Shown: positions 2,535 through 29,837 of the stretch, piece by piece
How positions within the stretch are numbered: position 1 is the first letter of the stretch
Layout: the number at the start of each line of letters is the position of its first letter
DNA from: a virus
Direction: 5' to 3' (one strand)
Virus record (IMG/VR): IMGVR_UViG_3300036820_000468
Span: 1 to 52,508 of that record
DNA: 52,508 nucleotides
Made by a program: the position numbers and the translations under genes
Notes under the pieces: generated by a model
Databases searched by the model: none
What the model saw: only the letters and a program-made list of their open reading frames with translations
Told to the model about the DNA's origin: nothing

Positions 2535-3226
2535 TACAGTGCGCTTGGCGCCGTCTCCGTAGCCTTGACCGGCTTGTTCTTGGCTCCGGCGGCGATCGTC
2601 TCGGCGCGGCCGACGACAAGACCCTTGAGTTCGGCGAGTTCCCGGCGCATCGCTTCGACTTCCTTGTCCTTTTCGCGCAGCCGCGCGTCCATGCGCTTAC
2701 GGATCTCACCTTCGGTTTCGTGGTGCGCCCACGTGTCCTTGAGATCGTCGAAGTCGCCGATACCGTAGATCTCGTAGAGGCTGATCGGATCGGGATCTTT
2801 GCCATCCTCGCTCAAGATCGTGATGTCGATGTCGGGCGAACGGTGCGGCCCGATCGGATTCATGTCAGGATGGAAGCCCTTCTGACCGCGGGGATAGTCG
2901 TAACGCATCAGATAGCGCGCCGATTCGATCGCGATGTGATCGCGCAGAACTTCGAGTATCGCTTCGTCGGTACACTGCTCGTACTCCTCGAAGCGGTCGA
3001 ATGGACCGAACCACGCCCGTGCCTTTTCAACCGGCTGGACGACCGAGTCGCCTGGGCGCAGCACGATGATCGTGTTCTTGAAGCCGCGGCCCTTGCACCA
3101 GTTGAGTTCGAGTGGCCGCTGCGAGTCGTGAGCGAGATGGATCCGCGCCATCTTCTCGATGACGGTGATCTCGCGGGACTGCTTGAGCTGACGCTCCTTG
3201 TCAATCTTTGTGAGAATCGTTCCCAT
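2534..3226 (-). CDS. Hypothetical structural-cluster protein with C-terminal coiled coil (230 aa)
   Basis: Residues 1-160 are a mixed alpha/beta region including TIIVLRPGDSVVQPVEKARAW and IDITILSEDGKDPDP. Residues about 160-205 (EGEIRKRMDARLREKDKEVEAM...) are strongly helical and heptad-like, consistent with a coiled coil, followed by an Ala/Lys-rich tail. The start codon overlaps the stop of the upstream virion-type gene (TAATG). Its location two genes after the capsid protein suggests a minor head or head-tail component; no family could be named with confidence. Confidence 0.75.
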   Translation of the reverse strand: MGTILTKIDKERQLKQSREITVIEKMARIHLAHDSQRPLELNWCKGRGFKNTIIVLRPGDSVVQPVEKARAWFGPFDRFEEYEQCTDEAILEVLRDHIAIESARYLMRYDYPRGQKGFHPDMNPIGPHRSPDIDITILSEDGKDPDPISLYEIYGIGDFDDLKDTWAHHETEGEIRKRMDARLREKDKEVEAMRRELAELKGLVVGRAETIAAGAKNKPVKATETAPSAL

Positions 3227-4245
3227 TAAAACTCTCCGTTGACCAAGATCGGGATTTTACCGGTGAACCCAGTTCCGCCCGTGAAGGTCGAGCCCGTCGC
3301 GACGAAGGTCGTGCCACCCGCGCCCGTCACGTTCGACGCCGTCGTGAGCGAGTTGGCGACCATGCCGCTGATGTGCGTGAAGAACCGGCCGGTTTCGCCC
3401 AGCGTGCCGTTGGCAGCCGTCGCTCCGAAGGTCACCAGGAACGGCGTGCTCAGAGCGTTGACCGTTACGGTGATCGCGCCAGCCGCGTTGGCCGCCGTGA
3501 AATATTGACTGAAGTTCGGCTGCAAGTTGAGGTACGCGACCATCGCCGCTGCGGCCGTGGTAGCGCTCGCCGCAGTCGTCGGGGTGAGCGCAAGGCTCCA
3601 CGTCGCCGTCTGCAACGTACCCGGAGCCGTGTCGAGGTACGGCGACTGGATGATGAGATTGAGCACGTCGCCCGCAGCCGGAGTAGCAACGGTGAAGACC
3701 TGCGCGGCCTGGGCGAGTGCCGCAGCCGTCAAGGACGAACCGATCCCCGACGCCGGCAAGTTCGCGACACCGACGAGTGCGCCCGACACAGCCGTCGCAA
3801 CGGCGACGCCTTGGCCGTAGCCCGCCGTGTTACGCGAACTGACGATCGGGAGTCCATCGACGATCGTTACCGCACCCGAGCCGGCCTGATCGACGTAGGC
3901 GTACGCAATGCCTTTGATCGTGGCGTTGACGAACTGCGTGCCACGGATGCTGGTCTGCGCGGACGACACGTACGTTGGCACGCCGCCGGCATTGATCGAT
4001 CCGCTGAAGCCCGGCCAGTCCGCTGCGACGACGCCTGCGATCTTGCCTTTGGTCGTGCCGGCCGGTAACGGCTGCACGGTCTGAAAATCCGGGTAAGTCT
4101 GATTGTCGATCGAGACAAGCGCGAGAATGATGCCCGGAGCGTAGTTCGCCGGTACGTTATACGGCCGGTATGCTTGGGCGCCTTGCCCACCGTAGTTCGG
4201 CTCGTTGTTGGTGGTCAGATCGCCGGTCGTAGTCCACTTCGGCAT
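3226..4245 (-). CDS. Putative head decoration / structural protein (339 aa)
   Basis: A Gly/Ala/Thr/Val-rich 339-residue protein of predicted beta character. The N-terminus (MPKWTTTGDLTTNNEPNYGG) is followed by blocks reminiscent of phage capsid decoration or fibre proteins. Residues about 180-310 are Ala/Thr-rich strands with ITVTVNAL and FLVTFGATAANG, resembling the bacterial-Ig-like or virion insert domains seen in two other proteins of this window. AAGGAG lies ten bases before the ATG. It lies two genes after the major capsid protein, where decoration proteins are common. Assignment rests on context and composition. Confidence 0.65.
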   Translation of the reverse strand: MPKWTTTGDLTTNNEPNYGGQGAQAYRPYNVPANYAPGIILALVSIDNQTYPDFQTVQPLPAGTTKGKIAGVVAADWPGFSGSINAGGVPTYVSSAQTSIRGTQFVNATIKGIAYAYVDQAGSGAVTIVDGLPIVSSRNTAGYGQGVAVATAVSGALVGVANLPASGIGSSLTAAALAQAAQVFTVATPAAGDVLNLIIQSPYLDTAPGTLQTATWSLALTPTTAASATTAAAAMVAYLNLQPNFSQYFTAANAAGAITVTVNALSTPFLVTFGATAANGTLGETGRFFTHISGMVANSLTTASNVTGAGGTTFVATGSTFTGGTGFTGKIPILVNGEF

Positions 4246-11337: not shown

Positions 11338-14300
11338 CTACCAGCTTGCATTTGCTTCCTCGTCATCGTCATCGATTCCGTACTCGCCCAGATCGTCAAC
11401 CGCAACAGCGTCGAGTTCATCGAACGAACCGAGGTTGGGATCGTATCCGTAATCGTCGTCGGGGTCGATCTGCCGGGCTTCGAGATCGGAGCTGCCTGGA
11501 ATGATCCCCATCTCCAAGCGCATCACCGCGTGCATAATCTGGAAGCTCGAAACGAAATCGTCGTGACGACCGGCGGCACCGCCGTAGCTGCGTTCGTCGC
11601 CGAAGGGGTCGTGCTGCCGATAGCTGCTCATCTCGGTGACGACCTCTTCGGAGGGGACGGCGATCATATTGTTCTCGATCGTCCGGCACATCCACGCGAC
11701 CGCGGTCGGCTTGGTCTTCGCGTTACTTTCCCAGCCGATGTGTTTAGAGAACGGCATATCCGCGACGCCGGGCATCCGGTAGTGGTAGATCTGATAGAGC
11801 CGCTTCTGATCGATGTACGTGCATGTTGCCGTTCCTGGGCCCGTCCACTCCGGTACGAGTTTGGGCGAGACGACCTTATCCCCAACGCGCTGCTGACAGA
11901 GCCATCCAATCGCTGCGCAGACTTCACCAAAAGCAATCGGGTTGATGCGCCCACGCCAGGTCATGATTAGTTCGTCGCGCTCGAGTTCGTTGAGCACGCC
12001 GACGCAGATGGTCGAAAAGTCGCCGTCCTTGGTCAACGGGTTCCCTGCACCGACATCGGCGCCGATGATAATGCGATCGCCTCTGCGCGGCCACCGCCAG
12101 ACGCGCAGGTTGTCAAGGGTCTTGTCGTAGACATCGTGAGAGCCAAAGCCCTGCGTCTCGGCTTCACCGGGCGAAAGCGGACGCGGCCGGCGGATCGTAT
12201 CGTAGATCGAAGCGTACTTATTGGCCTGATCATTTTCGCCCCAATAAATATCGCCTTCCCACTCCGGCTCGCGGACGTTCTCCATCAGCGTCTTGATCGC
12301 ACCCATCGAAAAAACATTGGTACCCGAGAGCAAGAACGCCGTCGCGAGATCCGAGTTATGAACGAGGATGCCACCAGCGTCGAAAACATTGGTTTGAGCG
12401 ATATGTAGGTCATAGACTCTTCGAGTCCCAATCGGATCGACAGAAATAACCTGGTCGACATACCCGGCAATACGCTCTGGCCGTCCACGGTTAGATGCAG
12501 GTTTCTCCCTGGCTCGCTTTCTCGCAGAAACGAATCCTATCTCGTAGCAAAATATTTTTGCGTCGTACGATAACAAGGCAAGCTCAAAGCCTGCGTATTG
12601 CGTCCCCTTTTTTATCACACGCCGTCGGGAGCTACGAATATGGAGTGATAGCAGCAAGTGCTGAACGTCCCGGGAAAACCTCTCTTTATTGGTAAACAGT
12701 TTAACGCTGTTCTTTGTAGCGGAAACCCAACCGTCTGCCTCAAATAATGCGCGCAGGAATTCGCGGACGACTGAACCAGGGCTCCTACGAATACACTCGG
12801 GAACGCAAACCTTTCTGCGAGCCAAATGATCTCGCATCTCTCCACAACCTAAACGCAACAAAAACTCTTTTACGGCCCTACTGCTCGAGCGAAGCCTACG
12901 GCAGCCTTTATTCGGGCCAGTTAACGATTCCTCAAAACTTATTCTAAAAAGTTTTTCCCCCAAACGCTTAATGTCGCTCGACACTTCTTCATCCCGAGCA
13001 TCACAAGCGAAGTCCAAAGCATTTCCGTATAGGCTTCCGTCACCCATGAAGTACCCAAGGAAACGCGCAAGCTCCGTCGTTATCTCAACCGAGGATTCTA
13101 CTGTAGGTAATACATTCCATCGGGCAACAAACGGTTTCTTCGCCAGCATCGGGGCCTGTAGAAGAACTTGTTCCCCCAAAGCATCCCCCGCAAATACGAA
13201 CTCGCCGTCTGCTTTTTTGATGGGGTGCGTCAGGGTACACTCGATGGTATAGCCCGTAGCAGTAGAAACACGGACGCACTCCTGGTCGCCGTTATCGGCC
13301 CAGCCTAAAACTTTCCCACTTGAAGTTTCCGCTCCGCGTTCTATCTCCGATATTGGACGAATCCCTGAATCTGTACCAACCAACGTGTCACCTACCAGAC
13401 ACGGGTATTCTTGGTCGAAGAGGTTCGGATCACGGTTGAACGGCGGAACCGCCAATCTCGCACGGCGCCATTTGAGCTGCTCGAGCGTCACGTGGGGGAA
13501 GCGCTTCATAATATCGCGCTCTTCGGATTTGATCGTTCGTTCGAATCGCGCACGCTGCGACATATCTTCAAACGGAATCTGAAACGACTTAATCATTTCG
13601 TGCCACGGTATAAAGACCAGCCGCGTCTCTCCGTACTGCGTGCGCTTACGTTCCTTAGCATCCATGCACTGCTCGTAGAAGAACTCACCGCGACCGGTCT
13701 GACCATTGGGCGTCGATTCCATATACTGCGAGGATTGCTTATCATCCGATAGCGTCGGGCTCAGAGCGCGAAAAAGATCGTCGCCATTATCGTAATAGCC
13801 GACTTCGGTAGCGTGCAGGTTCTGAAAACCGTGGCCGAGGTACGCATCGATAGACTTGGCCGATGCGCTAAAGATGCGAGAGTTCAGTGGCGGGGCGAAC
13901 TCGAGTCGGTCAGTCGGCGGGTTATTGTTATATTTCGCGAGCAACTCAGGACGAACATCGAAGACCTGCGCCTCGCCCCCAACGTTAAACGTGACGCTCT
14001 TGGGTAGATAGTTCCAGAACGTCGTACACATTCCAAGCACGTTCTCCGACGGCTTGGCTTGATTGCCGACGATTAAAGAGTCGGTGTTCGGAGTCGTCGT
14101 CGTATCGTCGAAGATCAGCGACTCGGCACCGGTCGATAGCCCCGCTCGCCGCGATTTGCAGATGATAATGCGCACCGGCATCCGGTGGTCGCGAAACCAC
14201 TTATGCGTATCGTACAAACGGATCTGCGCTTCGTTGTAGCGCAGGCGTATGATCTTTCGAGTCTGCGCTAACTTAATCCAGTACAGGTTCTCGATCCGAA

Positions 14301-24347: not shown

Positions 24348-25114
24348 GTCACGAACCTTTAAGCGACGCGTACAAAAAAGCGTACGACGCAGTAATGAAA
24401 GATTTGCGTGCCTTCGAGTTCGCGCCGATGCCGTTTCCGTTTTACGAGGGTATCCCACCGAAGCCGACCGGTTTTAGCGTCGCCGAACTGCTTGGGCTAT
24501 ACGTTCCAAAGGACGACGATCCGTACGTTTTAGATAAAGACACACAGCTTTTTCTTCCGCGCGATTACGATCGTTACGCTTATTACCCTTCCAGTTCTAG
24601 TTTCCTGAATGCGCTAATGCCGCCGCCGCCTTCGCCGTGCTGCTATCCGCGCTCGTGGCCGAACTATATGCCGTGGTCGTGGCTTATTGACGACGAGCCG
24701 AAAACGGTAGTACCGCCGAAACCGGAAAAGGTAAAGCAAGATACGTGCGTCGTCGGGTACCGCAACTGGCTTTTGCTATTCGTCGGCGAGCAGCAAGTGC
24801 TACTGCGATCAACGGCCGTTCGTCACTACGTTTGGCCGCCGGGCGAAGCCGCAAAAGGTGAGTCGCCAACCGGTAACGGGCTGTACGCGTATACAACTTT
24901 GAAGCGGGCACGGGCCAATGCGTACGGTACCGACGTACTTGGTCATGTCAAACTTTGGGGCACGGTTTACGAACATTCCGACGGTGTCTTTCGTGGCGGG
25001 CGCGGGTATCCCACAAAACTTTTAGTTCACAAAGACGTAAAGAACGCGAAGAACGTCGCGCAGATGCTCGCACGGGCTTACGGATGCGACGTCGTTGTCG
25101 GCTACGACGACTGA
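24344..25114 (+). CDS. Hypothetical protein (256 aa)
   Basis: N-terminal half: helical start (SDAYKKAYDAVMKDLRAF) and a Pro/Tyr/Trp-rich segment (PPPPSPCCYPRSWPNYMPW). C-terminal half (GLYAYTTLKRARANAYGTDV, GHVKLWGTVYEHSDGVFRGG) resembles small phage and actinobacterial proteins with a G-x-V-x2-H core whose role is unknown. ATGA overlap upstream; the helicase starts 20 bases before its end. Confidence 0.65.
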   Translation: MSHEPLSDAYKKAYDAVMKDLRAFEFAPMPFPFYEGIPPKPTGFSVAELLGLYVPKDDDPYVLDKDTQLFLPRDYDRYAYYPSSSSFLNALMPPPPSPCCYPRSWPNYMPWSWLIDDEPKTVVPPKPEKVKQDTCVVGYRNWLLLFVGEQQVLLRSTAVRHYVWPPGEAAKGESPTGNGLYAYTTLKRARANAYGTDVLGHVKLWGTVYEHSDGVFRGGRGYPTKLLVHKDVKNAKNVAQMLARAYGCDVVVGYDD

Positions 25115-27434
25115 GTATTGGGCGCACCAGCTCGCTGACGCCCAACAGTATGCAGCAGTTCCCGGACACTTTCGCTTCTGGGATCCACGAACCGGGAAAA
25201 CGCGCGGCACTGTATTAGAGATCGCGATCTGGATTCAGCAGTTCGGAATCAAAAAGATTCTGATCGTTGCGCCTGTTGACGGCTGCAGCGTTTGGCTCAA
25301 AGAGGACGAGCTTGGACGCTTTGACGCTAGCAAGGTTTGCATCGTCGATCTTTCGACCGACGATCCGATTCGCGAACGCAGCCTCGTTTTGGGGTCGCTC
25401 AAGCAGGTGCGACCAACGATCGTCGTCGTCAACCGCGACGTCATTTTCCGCAAGCGCATCGTTACGAAGACCAAAGAAGTTCCCGACGTCTTCGCCGGCA
25501 CGACGGAGATCAGCAGCACGAAGCATTACGCCGGGCTGCTTGACGCATTGCTCAAATGGGGGCCCGAAGCGGTCGTGCTTGACGAGTGTGTGCCTGCTGG
25601 GACGCTAGTATCAACGCCTTATGGCGACATCCCCATTGAAGCATTAACCGTAGGAGCCGTGGTTTGGGGTTTTGACGAAGCGGCGGGAACACGTATCCCT
25701 GCTATTGTGACACAGACGTTTGCGCAACGATCGACAGCGCCTCTCGTTAAAATAAATGATGTTACGATGACCGCAAATCATCCAGTCTGGATCGGTACTG
25801 AATATATTGCAGCGGGTCGCTTGCAGGATAATGCTTTAGTGTACTACACTACTACAAATGATCCTAGCCAAAAAATGCGCCCGGTGCGCGCGTCGGTTCG
25901 AGTACATCAAGACAACCCGAACACGCAAGTTCTGCTCCAATCGTTGCAGCAATGCTGCAACATTAGAAGGCAAGAACTTTCGGGGTTACATCACTTCGAA
26001 ACGCAACCCGTTTCGAACCCGAGAAGTACAGATAAAGGCTTTAGCTGCGAGCAAAGCTCACGGCTACGCGCATCTAACGGGGGGGAATGGCACGGGGATA
26101 ACTCACCCTCAAGCCTTGCTGCTGGAGCAACTGACCGACTGGGTTCCATCGTTTTGGATTCGTTTAGAAGGGACACTTTACGAGATCGATATAGCGCATC
26201 CAGCGCTACAGATCGCAATAGAGGTAGATGGACAGAGTCACAACGCCAAAACGGTTCGTGCTCGCGACGCTCGCAAGGACAAGCGCTTACGGATGGCGGG
26301 ATGGGTGGTAGTCCGGATTTGGAACAAAGAGATTTTGCGGGACCTTCCCAAAGTTCTCAAGCGATTACAGTCTATAACATTGAAACGTCAACGGGTAACT
26401 ACTTCGCGGGAGGTTTAGCCGTACATAACTGCCACGATTATCGCCGGATCTCCAGCAAACGCGGACAGGCTGCCGAAGCGCTGGCCAAGCGGGCGCGTTT
26501 CCGACGCGGGCTCTCCGGTACGCCCGATCCGCGCGATTACCTGGACTTTTACGGGCAGTATAAGATCGTCGCACCACACGTCTTTGGAACCCGTAAATCC
26601 GATTTCCAAGACCGATACTGCAAAATGTCGTATCATTTTCCGAACAAGGTAGATGGCTACCGGAACGTGGAGGAGCTTCGTGCCAAACTTTTTTCCGTGG
26701 CGTCACGCGTCCGACAAGAAGACTGCTTCGATATGCCCGAAATCCTACCCGACATCTTCGTTGACGTTCCACTCTCACGACTTGCTCGGGAGCTTTATTC
26801 CGAGCTTACCGCTAATTACGTTGCTGAGTTCCTCGGGATCGAACTCGACGCGACCCACCAGCTCTCGCGGCTGACCATCCTGCACCAGCTCGCCCAGGGC
26901 TTCGTACGCGACGAGCAAGGTAACCCCGAATGGGTCTTTGACGGTAAGATCAAAGCCGCGCACGATTACATCGAAGAGATGCTGCGCGCCGATAAGCGTG
27001 TGGTCGTCTACCATCACTATACGCCCGAAGGCGAACGGCTCTTTAACGAGTGCGTCAAAGAGTACGGCGCAAAGCGGGTCGGGCGTTTGAGCGGCGGCGT
27101 CACGCGGCTCGACCGCTCGCCACACCCGTTTGCCGACCGTCCGCAGATGCGCGTCTTCGTTGCCCAAGAGAGCACCGCGCAGTTGGCCATCAGTCTGCGC
27201 GAAGCCGATCACGTGCTCTGGTACTCCTGGGGCCCGGCCGCCGATGTGAACTATCAGGCCCGCCAGCGAATCTTCGATGAGCGCTCCAAGAAGCCGCACG
27301 GGCTCTCATATACGTTCTTACGCAGCGTCAACACAGCGGACGCGTTCATGACCAACACGATCGCGCGCAAGCGCACGGCCTCACAAATGCTACTGGACTT
27401 TGGCTTTGCAAAAGCCGCTAAGGGAGAAGCGTAA
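25095..27434 (+). CDS. SF2 (SNF2-like) helicase interrupted by an intein
   Basis: Motif I WDPRTGKT (res 29-36), motif Ia ILIVAP, motif II formed by VVLDE + CHDYR across the intein (a DECH box), motif III RRGLSGTPDPRDYLDFYG, and C-terminal motifs KRVVVYHHYTPEGE and ADHVLWYSWGPAADVNYQ. With the intein (res 165-445) removed the enzyme is about 498 residues, typical for phage SF2 helicases. TTG start inside the end of the preceding gene; no better start fits the Q-motif region (YWAHQLADAQQYA). The stop is directly followed by the ATG of the polymerase gene. Likely a replication or recombination helicase. Confidence 0.88.
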   Translation: MSATTTEYWAHQLADAQQYAAVPGHFRFWDPRTGKTRGTVLEIAIWIQQFGIKKILIVAPVDGCSVWLKEDELGRFDASKVCIVDLSTDDPIRERSLVLGSLKQVRPTIVVVNRDVIFRKRIVTKTKEVPDVFAGTTEISSTKHYAGLLDALLKWGPEAVVLDECVPAGTLVSTPYGDIPIEALTVGAVVWGFDEAAGTRIPAIVTQTFAQRSTAPLVKINDVTMTANHPVWIGTEYIAAGRLQDNALVYYTTTNDPSQKMRPVRASVRVHQDNPNTQVLLQSLQQCCNIRRQELSGLHHFETQPVSNPRSTDKGFSCEQSSRLRASNGGEWHGDNSPSSLAAGATDRLGSIVLDSFRRDTLRDRYSASSATDRNRGRWTESQRQNGSCSRRSQGQALTDGGMGGSPDLEQRDFAGPSQSSQAITVYNIETSTGNYFAGGLAVHNCHDYRRISSKRGQAAEALAKRARFRRGLSGTPDPRDYLDFYGQYKIVAPHVFGTRKSDFQDRYCKMSYHFPNKVDGYRNVEELRAKLFSVASRVRQEDCFDMPEILPDIFVDVPLSRLARELYSELTANYVAEFLGIELDATHQLSRLTILHQLAQGFVRDEQGNPEWVFDGKIKAAHDYIEEMLRADKRVVVYHHYTPEGERLFNECVKEYGAKRVGRLSGGVTRLDRSPHPFADRPQMRVFVAQESTAQLAISLREADHVLWYSWGPAADVNYQARQRIFDERSKKPHGLSYTFLRSVNTADAFMTNTIARKRTASQMLLDFGFAKAAKGEA
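25587..26429 (+). mobile_element. Intein in the helicase DECH box (281 aa) with an out-of-frame endonuclease gene
   Basis: N-terminal splicing block: Cys1 with CVPAGTLVSTPYGDIPIEAL; block B with MTANHPVWIG. C-terminal blocks: ITVYNIETSTGNYFAGGLAV then His-Asn, followed by Cys+1. It is inserted exactly between Glu and Cys of motif II, so helicase activity needs splicing. The middle 170 codons (about 25860-26365) in the splicing frame are Ser/Arg/Gln-rich and resemble no domain. In the +1 frame the same DNA encodes a recognisable endonuclease (25858-26418). Confidence 0.92.
25858..26418 (+). CDS. EDxHD/Vsr-like homing endonuclease nested in the intein, +1 frame
   Basis: A 186-residue protein read in the +1 frame relative to the helicase. 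N-terminal zinc ribbon C7-x2-C10...C26-x3-C30 (CARCARRFEYIKTTRTRKF), a GGNG/THPQ segment (res 75-85), and a Vsr/DUF559-type nuclease core: TLYEIDIAHP, LQIAIEVDGQSHN, GWVVVRIWNKEIL. Glu/Asp and His positions of this PD-(D/E)xK-related fold are kept. No ribosome site was found before the ATG, so translation may depend on frameshifting or weak initiation. The last 50 bases also encode the intein C-terminal splicing block in the other frame. The domain logic of this frame is much better than that of the splicing frame, so it is real coding sequence. Confidence 0.85.
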   Translation: MILAKKCARCARRFEYIKTTRTRKFCSNRCSNAATLEGKNFRGYITSKRNPFRTREVQIKALAASKAHGYAHLTGGNGTGITHPQALLLEQLTDWVPSFWIRLEGTLYEIDIAHPALQIAIEVDGQSHNAKTVRARDARKDKRLRMAGWVVVRIWNKEILRDLPKVLKRLQSITLKRQRVTTSREV

Positions 27435-29837
27435 ATGCCCCGCACCCACCGTGAAATGGACAGAGTCTTCGCCGAGGTTTTTAATGAGTTGCTCCGTCAG
27501 AACCGGTTGCGCGATTGCAGGGCGCTGATGATCGTCGGGGAAGCGCCTGGTGCCGAGGAAGATCACTACGGCCGCCCGTTCATCGGTAAGGCCGGACAGA
27601 TACTCGCAACGCTCCTAACCGAGAACGGATTCAAACGTGAAGAAATCTATATCACCAACGCGGCCAAATGCCGCCCGCCGAAAAACCGCGACCCCAAAGC
27701 CGCCGAAATCAAAGCGTGCCGCCAGTACCTCAAAGCCGAGATCGAAGCCGTGCAGCCACGCCTTATCGTTTCGCTTGGTAATAACGCCCTCAAAAGTCTC
27801 ACTGGCGAGACAGGGATCTCCAAGCACCGAGGCAGTGTGCTCCCATTGCTTCCGCACTTTGAAGCAAGCGATTGCGGTGTTTTTGTTGCAACTCACCCTG
27901 CGGCAGCGCTTCACTACCCCCATTTCATTGAACAGATCCGAGATGACTTAGGGCTGCTGCGCAAGACGTTCTACGGCGAGTTTGTCACGATCGAGACGCC
28001 GTGGTCGCCCGACCCATGGCCCGATGGCGTACCCAACGGTTATGATGGCTCGCAGATGTGGTCGTTCGACCTTGAAACCAACGCCAGTGAAACACGCGAT
28101 CCGTTCGCAAAGGTCTACCTCTGCGGAATCGACGACGGCCGCAGCATCAAAATGCGTGACGACGCCTTCGGAACGGCAGTTCTCCTTAGGGGCCATACAC
28201 AGCGACTCGTCGGCCACAACAGCTCGCGCTTCGACCGTCTGCATCTGCGTAAGGCAACCGGCATCGACATCAAGTGCGACGACACGATGCTGATGGGCTG
28301 GCTCCTCCACGAAGAATGGGGACCGGCAAAGCGGCTCAACCTCGAATCGCTGTGCGTCGGCGAACTCGGTGTCGAACCGTGGAAGCGCGACGTTACCTGG
28401 GACTGGCGCAAGCCGACGACGATCCCCTGGGACGAGGCCAAGGCCTACTGCGCGCACGACACGCGGCTTACGCGAATGCTCGCCCAGCGCCTGATTCCGC
28501 AACTGCAGGAACAGGAGCTTTATACGTTTTATGATCGGCTGTTGTTGCCGGCGTCGCGCGCACTGGCTGACATGGAAGAGCGCGGCCTGGTCGTCATCGA
28601 CGTAAACGTACGCGCCGCTCGAGCCTTCTACGAAGAGAAAACCGCACGATTTCTCAACGAGGTCAAGCAAGTCGCTGCCAACTACGGACTCGAATCGTTC
28701 AATCCGGGCAGCACGAAGCAAGTCGGTCAACTGCTCTTCGATAAGCTAGGCTACTTCGCCGAAGAGTTCACGCCCACAGGTGCTGCGTCGACTAACGTCG
28801 GCGTCATCAAGACGCTACGCGAGAACCTCGGCGACGAGGCCAGCCCCGTGCTCGACGCGACGCTGCGTTACCGCAAGTGCCGCAACAAAATGCTGGGTAC
28901 CTATATCGCTCACTACGAAAACGAGCGCGACTACTTCGGCCGCTGGTACCCGTGGTATTCACTCACGCAGACCGCCACAGGCCGCACATCGGGGAGCGCG
29001 CAGCAGATTCCGCGTGGCGACACCGAACTGGTTGATCCAGGCGAGCATCCGATGATCCGGCGCTGCGTGGGCGGCGAGCCGGGTGAAGTCATCCTCGACA
29101 TCGATTTTGCGCAGCTCGAGATGCGGGTCGCCGCATCGAGGTACGTCTTTGACGAGCCCAACCTGCGCGCGGCCTTCGAACAGAACCTCGACGTGCATCT
29201 GCTGCTTGCATCGACGATCACAGGCAAACCGCTCGAGCATGTCACCAAAACCGAACGCCAAAACGCCAAGCCGCCAAACTTTCTGTTCCTATACGGCGGC
29301 GAGGAGGATATGTACCGGCGCACGCTGCTCGAAGACCAGGACATCGTCAAGAGCTGGGCGCAGGCCAACCACGAACGCAACGCGTTCTTTGCGCGCTGGT
29401 CGGGACTGCCCGCCGGGCACGTGCGCGTGATCGCCGAGCTGCAGGCCGCTGGCCGAGTGCGAACGCTCTTCGGAACGCTGCGCCGGCTGCCCAACGTCTA
29501 TTCCGAGGAGCGCAAGGTCCGGGTCGAATCGTTCCGCCAGGCCGTCAACGCCAAGGTCCAGACGCCCGCCTGCCACATGGCGCTCATCGGATTGGTCCTG
29601 CTGACCGCTGCGGGCTTCAAGGTGCGTTCGTTTCAGCACGACGCATACTTAGTCGGGATCGAGGACTCCGAGGCCGTCGTGCGCCGCGCAGCGGCCCAAA
29701 TCAAGGAGCTTTTGGAACGGGGCGTGCCTGAGGTCATGGCCTCGACCTTTGGGATCGACTGGGACGTGCCGCTCAAGGTCGACATGAAATGCGGAACGGC
29801 CTGGACGGAAAATGACCGTGGTCACTGGTTGACATAA
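27435..29837 (+). CDS. Uracil-DNA glycosylase-like domain fused to DNA polymerase I (family A)
   Basis: Residues 30-175: family 4/5-type UDG fold with GEAPG (35-39), GRPFIGKAG, ITNAAKCRPP and THPAAALHYP (HPAA 154-157). Only the later pair of the usual four iron-sulfur cysteines (C79, C95) is in place; an N-terminal C-x2-C is missing. Residues 205-360: 3'-5' exonuclease with SFDLETNA (D212, E214), VGHNSSRFD and YCAHDTRLT. Residues 380-800: polymerase with motif A LDIDFAQLEMR, motif B RQNAKPPNFLFLYG, and motif C QHDAYL, where the usual Glu after Asp is Ala. There is no 5' nuclease domain. The main replicative polymerase; the UDG part may recognise or remove uracil in DNA. Confidence 0.93.
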   Translation: MPRTHREMDRVFAEVFNELLRQNRLRDCRALMIVGEAPGAEEDHYGRPFIGKAGQILATLLTENGFKREEIYITNAAKCRPPKNRDPKAAEIKACRQYLKAEIEAVQPRLIVSLGNNALKSLTGETGISKHRGSVLPLLPHFEASDCGVFVATHPAAALHYPHFIEQIRDDLGLLRKTFYGEFVTIETPWSPDPWPDGVPNGYDGSQMWSFDLETNASETRDPFAKVYLCGIDDGRSIKMRDDAFGTAVLLRGHTQRLVGHNSSRFDRLHLRKATGIDIKCDDTMLMGWLLHEEWGPAKRLNLESLCVGELGVEPWKRDVTWDWRKPTTIPWDEAKAYCAHDTRLTRMLAQRLIPQLQEQELYTFYDRLLLPASRALADMEERGLVVIDVNVRAARAFYEEKTARFLNEVKQVAANYGLESFNPGSTKQVGQLLFDKLGYFAEEFTPTGAASTNVGVIKTLRENLGDEASPVLDATLRYRKCRNKMLGTYIAHYENERDYFGRWYPWYSLTQTATGRTSGSAQQIPRGDTELVDPGEHPMIRRCVGGEPGEVILDIDFAQLEMRVAASRYVFDEPNLRAAFEQNLDVHLLLASTITGKPLEHVTKTERQNAKPPNFLFLYGGEEDMYRRTLLEDQDIVKSWAQANHERNAFFARWSGLPAGHVRVIAELQAAGRVRTLFGTLRRLPNVYSEERKVRVESFRQAVNAKVQTPACHMALIGLVLLTAAGFKVRSFQHDAYLVGIEDSEAVVRRAAAQIKELLERGVPEVMASTFGIDWDVPLKVDMKCGTAWTENDRGHWLT

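What the first reader, a model, noticed from the sequence alone, without database searches (positions are those of the whole stretch)
25587..26429. Intein whose homing endonuclease gene is overprinted in another reading frame
Seen: the helicase frame stays open through a complete set of intein splicing blocks (Cys1 block, TANHP block, C-terminal VHN with Cys+1), inserted inside the DECH box. The 500 bases between the blocks make no domain sense in that frame (Ser/Arg/Gln-rich). The +1 frame encodes a zinc ribbon plus a Vsr/EDxHD-type nuclease (25858-26418). Known: endonucleases of this family are reported as free-standing genes between fractured (split) intein genes, and ordinary inteins carry endonucleases in frame. 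Inference: this is an intermediate form, in which a free-standing endonuclease gene has invaded a mini-intein and kept the splicing frame open by overprinting. The last 50 bases code for both the nuclease end and the C-terminal splicing block.
Basis: partly seen in the sequence, partly recalled or inferred. Interest (0 to 1): 0.92.

Follow-up and report, generated by a model that had tools for sequence, protein, structure and literature searches.

The report
Intein with nuclease in second frame
In this phage and in some 140 related viral and bacterial sequences, one stretch of DNA is read two ways: in one frame as a self-removing protein insert (intein) inside a helicase, and in the next frame as the DNA-cutting enzyme that probably spreads the insert; this is a widespread, apparently undescribed layout that may explain how genes get split by inteins.

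Summary
Confirmed. The helicase ORF (25095-27434) stays open through a complete intein (25587-26429) in its DE|CH box. A 186-aa zinc-ribbon, EDxHD-type (I-Bth0305I/DUF559) nuclease is encoded in the +1 frame inside it (25858-26418). It is not an artefact and not a singleton. Of 156 distinct nuclease-selected loci, 143 have the same layout, always with the nuclease +1 to the intein; 7 are split ('fractured') with the two halves still in register; 6 have no intein; none has the nuclease in frame. Cultured phages phi673, CP-T1 and MR14 are among them, and phi674 is an empty-site sister of phi673. Selection on both frames shows at codon level: a nuclease codon ending in T never precedes AA/AG/GA (0 T, 1812 C; free-standing genes 647 T, 520 C). 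Amino-acid constraint lies on the nuclease; the intein-frame linker only has to stay open. Best explanation: a mobile intein that splices as a mini-intein with a disordered linker, and makes its homing endonuclease by internal initiation. The phylogeny suggests overprinting is a stable majority state from which fractured genes derive. Closest precedent: the out-of-frame HNH 'ShiLan' insert, which has no intein (PMC11855218). Splicing, cleavage and nuclease expression are inferred, not shown.

The parts
25095..27434 (+). SF2-type DNA helicase ORF (phrog_62) interrupted by the intein; TTG start is the only candidate near the 5' end
25587..26429 (+). intein (281 aa), inserted in the DE|CH box (motif II); C+1 is Cys at 26430-26432
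   Evidence: profile hits solved inteins, fold hits
25587..25857 (+). intein N-terminal half (Cys1 block, TANHP block), single-coded
25837..25839 (+). TAG stop in the nuclease frame, 21 nt upstream of the nuclease ATG; bounds any frameshift site to 25840-25857
   Evidence: sequence
25858..26418 (+). overprinted nuclease ORF, +1 frame, 186 aa, ATG start, TAG stop
25876..25947 (+). zinc-ribbon Cys residues of the nuclease (C7, C10, C26, C30)
   Evidence: (YacG)
26188..26325 (+). nuclease catalytic core: invariant D111, E122, D124, S127, H128, D137, W149, R153, N156
   Evidence: I-Bth0305I fold match
25858..26369 (+). intein-frame linker, Ser/Arg/Gln-rich, mostly predicted disordered, kept open but not conserved in sequence
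26370..26418 (+). dual-coded functional overlap: intein C-terminal block and nuclease C-terminal tail
   Evidence: sequence
26370..26432 (+). intein C-terminal block VYNIETSTGNYFAGGLAVHN plus C+1

Best explanation
This is a mobile intein with a dual-coding core. Read in the helicase frame, the whole stretch is translated as a splicing-competent mini-intein whose Hint halves are joined by a long disordered linker; it excises itself and rebuilds the DECH box. Read in the +1 frame from an internal start (ATG 25858), the same mRNA gives a separate zinc-ribbon EDxHD homing endonuclease that would cut intein-less helicase alleles at the DECH-box codons, so that repair copies the intein in. Selection acts on the amino acids of the nuclease. 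In the helicase frame it acts only against stop codons, by replacing T with C at nuclease third positions before AA/AG/GA codons, which is always synonymous. That makes +1 the one sense overlap that any nuclease sequence can occupy without creating a stop in the host frame. When the constraint is lost, stops accumulate and the intein becomes split (a 'fractured' gene). Shown here: the anatomy, both open frames, recurrence, the selection signature, an empty-site allele in phi674, and fractured relatives in register. Inferred: splicing, endonuclease activity and its target, internal initiation, and the direction of evolution.
For: Same layout in 143 of 156 distinct loci chosen only by nuclease similarity, always +1, none in frame, including cultured phages phi673, MR14, CP-T1 and several Vibrio phages. 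T3 avoidance: 0 T / 1108 C before AA/AG/GA in 83 non-redundant loci against 2415 T / 2195 C elsewhere, 647 T / 520 C in 53 free-standing DUF559 genes, and no effect in the exteins (0.358 vs 0.374); 0 / 1812 in the full set. Free-standing and fractured close relatives regain T (e.g. L067 30 T: 0 C). Substitutions that are silent in the nuclease but change the intein frame run at 0.257/0.190 (ts/tv); those silent in the intein frame but changing the nuclease at 0.088/0.059; those changing both at 0.100/0.077. Only M-[IMTNK] pairs force a stop, and only in the other sense frame; 77 of 83 nucleases have such a pair. Intein halves fold as Hint, the middle is disordered; the nuclease folds like I-Bth0305I. 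phi674 equals phi673 without the intein (534-aa exteins, 3 aa differences). Shine-Dalgarno-like matches are stronger at nuclease starts (63% vs 37% of controls, 0 of 1000 resamplings).
Against: In the window itself ATG 25858 has no Shine-Dalgarno match, so how the nuclease is started is unclear. No experiment shows splicing, nuclease activity or homing. Clustering of phi673/phi674 differences just downstream of the insertion fits co-conversion but is one case. The window's nuclease sits on a long branch, with its nearest relative (L116) at 42-48% identity.
Confidence: 0.85

Rival explanations
1. The nuclease is made not by internal initiation but by programmed +1 frameshifting of ribosomes translating the intein N-half, giving a helicase-N/intein-N/nuclease fusion.
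For: All loci share the same +1 relation; the window ATG lacks a Shine-Dalgarno match.
Against: In the window a TAG at 25837 leaves only six codons for the shift. ATG starts with GAGG-type ribosome sites recur at the same intein position in Vibrio and Pseudomonas phages, and such matches are enriched at nuclease starts across the family.
Confidence: 0.12
2. Sequencing or assembly indels have moved an ordinary in-frame intein endonuclease out of frame.
For: None beyond the general rarity of same-strand overlaps of this length.
Against: 142 independent loci, including finished genomes of cultured phages, have the same relation; the codon signature of double coding is present.
Confidence: 0.01
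3. The second open frame is a chance by-product of composition, and only one frame matters.
For: NNT to NNC changes are cheap, so open frames can occur by drift in C-rich genomes.
Against: 0 of 5000 synonymous shuffles are open for the window; about 1.3 of 83 loci would be expected open by chance; T is avoided only in stop-making contexts, also in loci with 70-80% T elsewhere.
Confidence: 0.01
4. The helicase-frame linker is itself a functional domain, so that both frames are under amino-acid selection.
For: Some intein-frame columns (e.g. LQ, R) are nearly invariant.
Against: Those columns lie over conserved nuclease codons; substitutions silent in the nuclease are tolerated regardless of the intein residue (SN about equal to SS, NS about equal to NN); the stretch is predicted disordered.
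Confidence: 0.07
5. The insert is a group I intron or another RNA-splicing element carrying a homing endonuclease.
For: EDxHD endonucleases are also known from group I introns.
Against: No Rfam match in 24900-27600 even at E<=1; the host frame is open with a complete intein; junctions are intein junctions.
Confidence: 0.01

Closest known systems
Fractured genes: split inteins with a free-standing Vsr-like endonuclease between the halves (Dassa et al. 2009, from memory; paper not held here)
   Same: Same kind of nuclease, same place between the intein halves, DNA-metabolism host genes, mainly phage.
   Different: There the intein frame is broken and the nuclease is its own gene; here the intein is continuous and the nuclease is overprinted. 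7 relatives found here (L080, L085, L090, L109, L193, L194, L252) are of the fractured kind (L252 with a single stop).
[quoted passage not shown]
   Same: An endonuclease hidden in another frame of an insert that leaves the host frame open, with patchy distribution.
   Different: HNH type, in a methylase, with no intein splicing blocks and no known splicing; here there is a complete intein and an EDxHD nuclease, and the family is far larger.
Ordinary endonuclease-containing inteins (e.g. PI-SceI)
   Same: Hint splicing domain with a homing endonuclease between the halves.
   Different: Theirs is in frame and part of the intein protein. The same phage has one, in its terminase (12355-13401, in-frame LAGLIDADG).
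I-Bth0305I / EDxHD homing endonucleases
   Same: Catalytic-domain fold and sequence profile.
   Different: I-Bth0305I is encoded in a group I intron; here the gene is overprinted in an intein and has a zinc ribbon at its N-terminus.
phi673 helicase intein (PMC6132909)
   Same: Same architecture.
   Different: The authors noted the intein and its absence in phi674; the passages found in that paper do not mention an overprinted nuclease.

Membership tests
Intein (protein-splicing Hint element) | Cys/Ser1 block, TxxH block, C-terminal HN and Cys/Ser/Thr +1 in one open frame with the host | tested here: met
   C1, TANHP, VHN, C+1 in frame
Intein (protein-splicing Hint element) | Hint fold | tested here: met
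   AlphaFold ends pLDDT 93-98; Foldseek hits 2LWY, 4O1R, 6FRH, E 1.9e-6 to 1.9e-5
Intein (protein-splicing Hint element) | Clean insertion at a conserved site, with empty alleles | tested here: met
   DE|CH junction; phi674 lacks exactly the 302-aa intein of phi673; for the window's own allele no empty sister was found
Intein (protein-splicing Hint element) | Protein splicing | not testable with these tools
   needs expression and mass spectrometry
Canonical endonuclease-containing intein | Endonuclease in frame with the splicing domain | tested here: not met
   nuclease in +1 frame here and in 143 of 156 loci; 0 in frame
EDxHD (Vsr-like, I-Bth0305I) homing endonuclease family | Catalytic-domain sequence profile and fold | tested here: met
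   PDB profile hits 3HRL 1.9e-10 and 3R3P 0.015; Foldseek 3R3P TMt 0.74, prob 1.00, E 2.2e-3; Pfam DUF559
EDxHD (Vsr-like, I-Bth0305I) homing endonuclease family | Conserved acidic and His active-site residues | tested here: met
   invariant D111, E122, D124, H128, D137 in 48 relatives; not superposed residue by residue on 3R3P
EDxHD (Vsr-like, I-Bth0305I) homing endonuclease family | Site-specific cleavage and homing | not testable with these tools
   biochemistry needed; phi673/phi674 presence/absence is consistent
Fractured gene (split intein plus free-standing nuclease gene) | Intein frame interrupted between the halves | tested here: not met
   no stop between the halves in the window; met in L080, L085, L090, L109, L193, L194, L252
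ShiLan-type out-of-frame endonuclease insert | HNH endonuclease and no splicing element | tested here: not met
   nuclease is DUF559/EDxHD and a complete intein is present
Group I intron with homing endonuclease | Intron RNA structure | tested here: not met
   no Rfam match

The most novel reading that the evidence does not exclude
Overprinted ('dual-coded') inteins are a major, overlooked class of mobile intein, and the stock from which split inteins and fractured genes arise: an endonuclease gene sits out of frame on the intein linker, fixed in the +1 frame because that is the one sense overlap that can always be kept stop-free by silent changes; loss of that constraint splits the intein.
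Probability: 0.6. Interest if true: 0.92.

Novelty: new variant of a known kind. Interest (0 to 1): 0.86.

Why it matters
Inteins were thought to carry their endonuclease in frame, lack it, or be split around a separate gene. A widespread state in which splicing domain and endonuclease share the same DNA in two frames explains how an endonuclease gene can sit inside an intein without stopping host translation, and gives a concrete, testable route from mini-intein to split intein, an open question since fractured genes were described. It is also a rare long same-strand gene overlap in which the selection on each frame can be read codon by codon, with natural controls (free-standing, fractured and empty alleles). 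It warns annotators that many phage 'helicases' hide a nuclease, and many open 'mini-intein linkers' are genes. Cultured phages (phi673/phi674 on C. glutamicum, CP-T1, MR14) make it directly testable.

Tried and rejected
A single-sequence scan of viral contigs with the window nuclease found no relative; alignments were needed. Plasmid search gave only free-standing DUF559 proteins. Literature searches for 'alternative reading frame', 'different reading frame' and 'overprint' with intein found nothing relevant; 'overlapping gene' and 'out-of-frame' found the ShiLan paper. A first codon-shuffle script timed out. A first SD comparison was biased by picking the best of several starts and was replaced by a resampled one. 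Considered and rejected: indel artefact, chance open frame, group I intron, canonical in-frame endonuclease, selected linker domain.

Full report
Observation. The helicase ORF 25095-27434 is continuous and contains an intein of 281 aa at 25587-26429, between DE and CH of motif II: Cys1 CVPAGT (25587), TANHP (25770), VYNIET...VHN (26370-26429), C+1 at 26430. In the +1 frame, 25858-26418 encodes 186 aa with a zinc ribbon (C7, C10, C26, C30; YacG-like) and a DUF559/MTES_1575 catalytic domain (Pfam E about 1e-10). A TAG at 25837 closes that frame upstream. The finding's coordinates are exact.

Relatives. tblastn of the nuclease in phage genomes hit only Corynebacterium phage phi673, inside its helicase gene. 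That hit is also out of frame: annotated CDS 2268-4778 of L002, nuclease ORF 2902-3540, +1. The phi673 nuclease in turn found 42 phage records, mostly Vibrio phages plus Pseudomonas phage MR14 and Staphylococcus. In all six examined (MR14, 104E43.1, 1.088.O, CP-T1, 159E43-1b, 1.194.O) the nuclease is in +1 of an uninterrupted helicase with full intein blocks. Scans with nuclease alignments brought in about 240 more viral and bacterial loci. After removing identical nucleases and keeping profile score over 75, 156 distinct loci remain: 143 overprinted (136 with both blocks in the same ORF, 7 cut by contig ends or with one block seen), 7 fractured, 6 without an intein, and none with nuclease and intein in one frame. 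Selection of loci used only the nuclease. Bacterial-genome members come from at least ten phyla. Most inserts sit in the DE|C(H/Q) box of SF2 helicases; L114, L118 and L252 are in DnaX.

Double coding is selected. In the +1 arrangement a host-frame stop can only be T (nuclease position 3) followed by AA, AG or GA (positions 1-2 of the next codon). NNT to NNC is always silent, so any protein can be written this way; in the other sense frame M followed by I, M, T, N or K forces a TGA, and 77 of 83 of these nucleases contain such a pair. This may explain why only +1 is seen, though common descent alone would also give it. Observed: 0 T and 1108 C before AA/AG/GA in 83 non-redundant loci (2415 T, 2195 C in other contexts); 647 T and 520 C in 53 free-standing DUF559 genes; exteins of the same ORFs show no bias. 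In the full set it is 0 to 1812. For the window alone, 0 T / 21 C against 33 T / 25 C gives P of about 10^-7.7, and 0 of 5000 synonymous shuffles leave the frame open. Close relatives freed of the overlap (L061, L067, L083, L095, L113) or fractured (L080, L085, L090, L109) use T freely. In 21 pairs, nuclease-silent changes are about two and a half to three times as frequent as nuclease-changing ones, whatever they do to the intein frame: the nuclease has the constrained sequence, the intein-frame linker only has to be open. Larger distances in this set are partly saturated, but the closest pair (L009/L012) shows the same.

Structure. The intein model is confident only at its two ends (pLDDT 93-98) with the middle mostly below 50; the ends match solved inteins. 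The nuclease model (mean pLDDT 89) matches the catalytic domain of I-Bth0305I (3R3P, TMt 0.74, prob 1.00, E 2.2e-3) and NGO0050 (3HRL). Sequence profiles agree. No RNA element is present.

Mobility. phi673 and phi674 helicases differ by exactly the 302-aa intein; exteins are both 534 aa with 3 differences, one being the C+1 residue (Cys against Val), and nucleotide differences cluster from 0 to +77 of the insertion point, as co-conversion would give. The paper describing these phages reports the intein and its absence in phi674; the passages found do not mention a nuclease (PMC6132909).

Expression. In many members the nuclease ATG follows a GAGG-like site coded by the intein's DEVL motif; across 73 loci 63% have a duplex energy of -5 or lower against 37% in matched controls (0 of 1000 resamplings). 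The window's own ATG has no such site, so reinitiation, non-SD initiation or a shift within 25840-25857 remain open.

Evolution. In a tree of 89 nucleases the four fractured loci then known form one clade (SH-aLRT 99) inside overprinted ones; free-standing ones are scattered (at least 4 changes) (the root is not known). All 7 fractured loci keep N- and C-halves in the same register, as expected if point mutations closed an overprinted frame. L252 has a single TAG, an incipient fracture, a suppressed stop or an error. Three free-standing relatives lie just upstream of, and overlapping, intein-free helicases. I therefore read overprinting as a stable main state and fracturing as derived, with moderate confidence.

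Compared with the known. Closest are the fractured genes of Dassa et al. (2009, from memory), the ShiLan out-of-frame HNH insert without an intein (PMC11855218), and EDxHD homing endonucleases (PMC3943268). No held paper describes a complete intein with an out-of-frame endonuclease, but subscription papers and preprints could not be searched. Filed as a new variant of a known kind: intein plus homing endonuclease, in a new genetic relation.

Noticed in passing
window 12355-13401 (-), in terminase ORF 11338-14217: A second intein in the same phage, in the terminase large subunit (YP|CLVGDT...VHN|S, 349 aa), with an ordinary in-frame LAGLIDADG_3 endonuclease: an internal contrast to the overprinted one.
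   Followed up: partly
window 27435-29837 (+): Uracil-DNA glycosylase superfamily domain fused to a family A DNA polymerase with a 3'-5' exonuclease domain, directly after the helicase.
   Followed up: no
window 25831-25839: AGGATAATG CTT TAG: a minimal start-stop in the nuclease frame 21 nt upstream of the nuclease ATG, at the position where relatives start their nuclease; possible reinitiation site.
   Followed up: partly
L061, L067, L095: Free-standing copies of the nuclease lie immediately upstream of, and overlap the start of, intein-free SF2 helicases, so the link to the helicase persists without the intein.
   Followed up: partly
L252:3001-3689: DnaX intein with the nuclease overprinted except for one TAG in the intein frame (3111): incipient fracture, suppressed stop or error.
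   Followed up: partly
L114, L118, L252: The same overprinted nuclease in DnaX (clamp loader) inteins rather than helicases, including a Lachnospiraceae and a WWE3 genome contig.
   Followed up: partly
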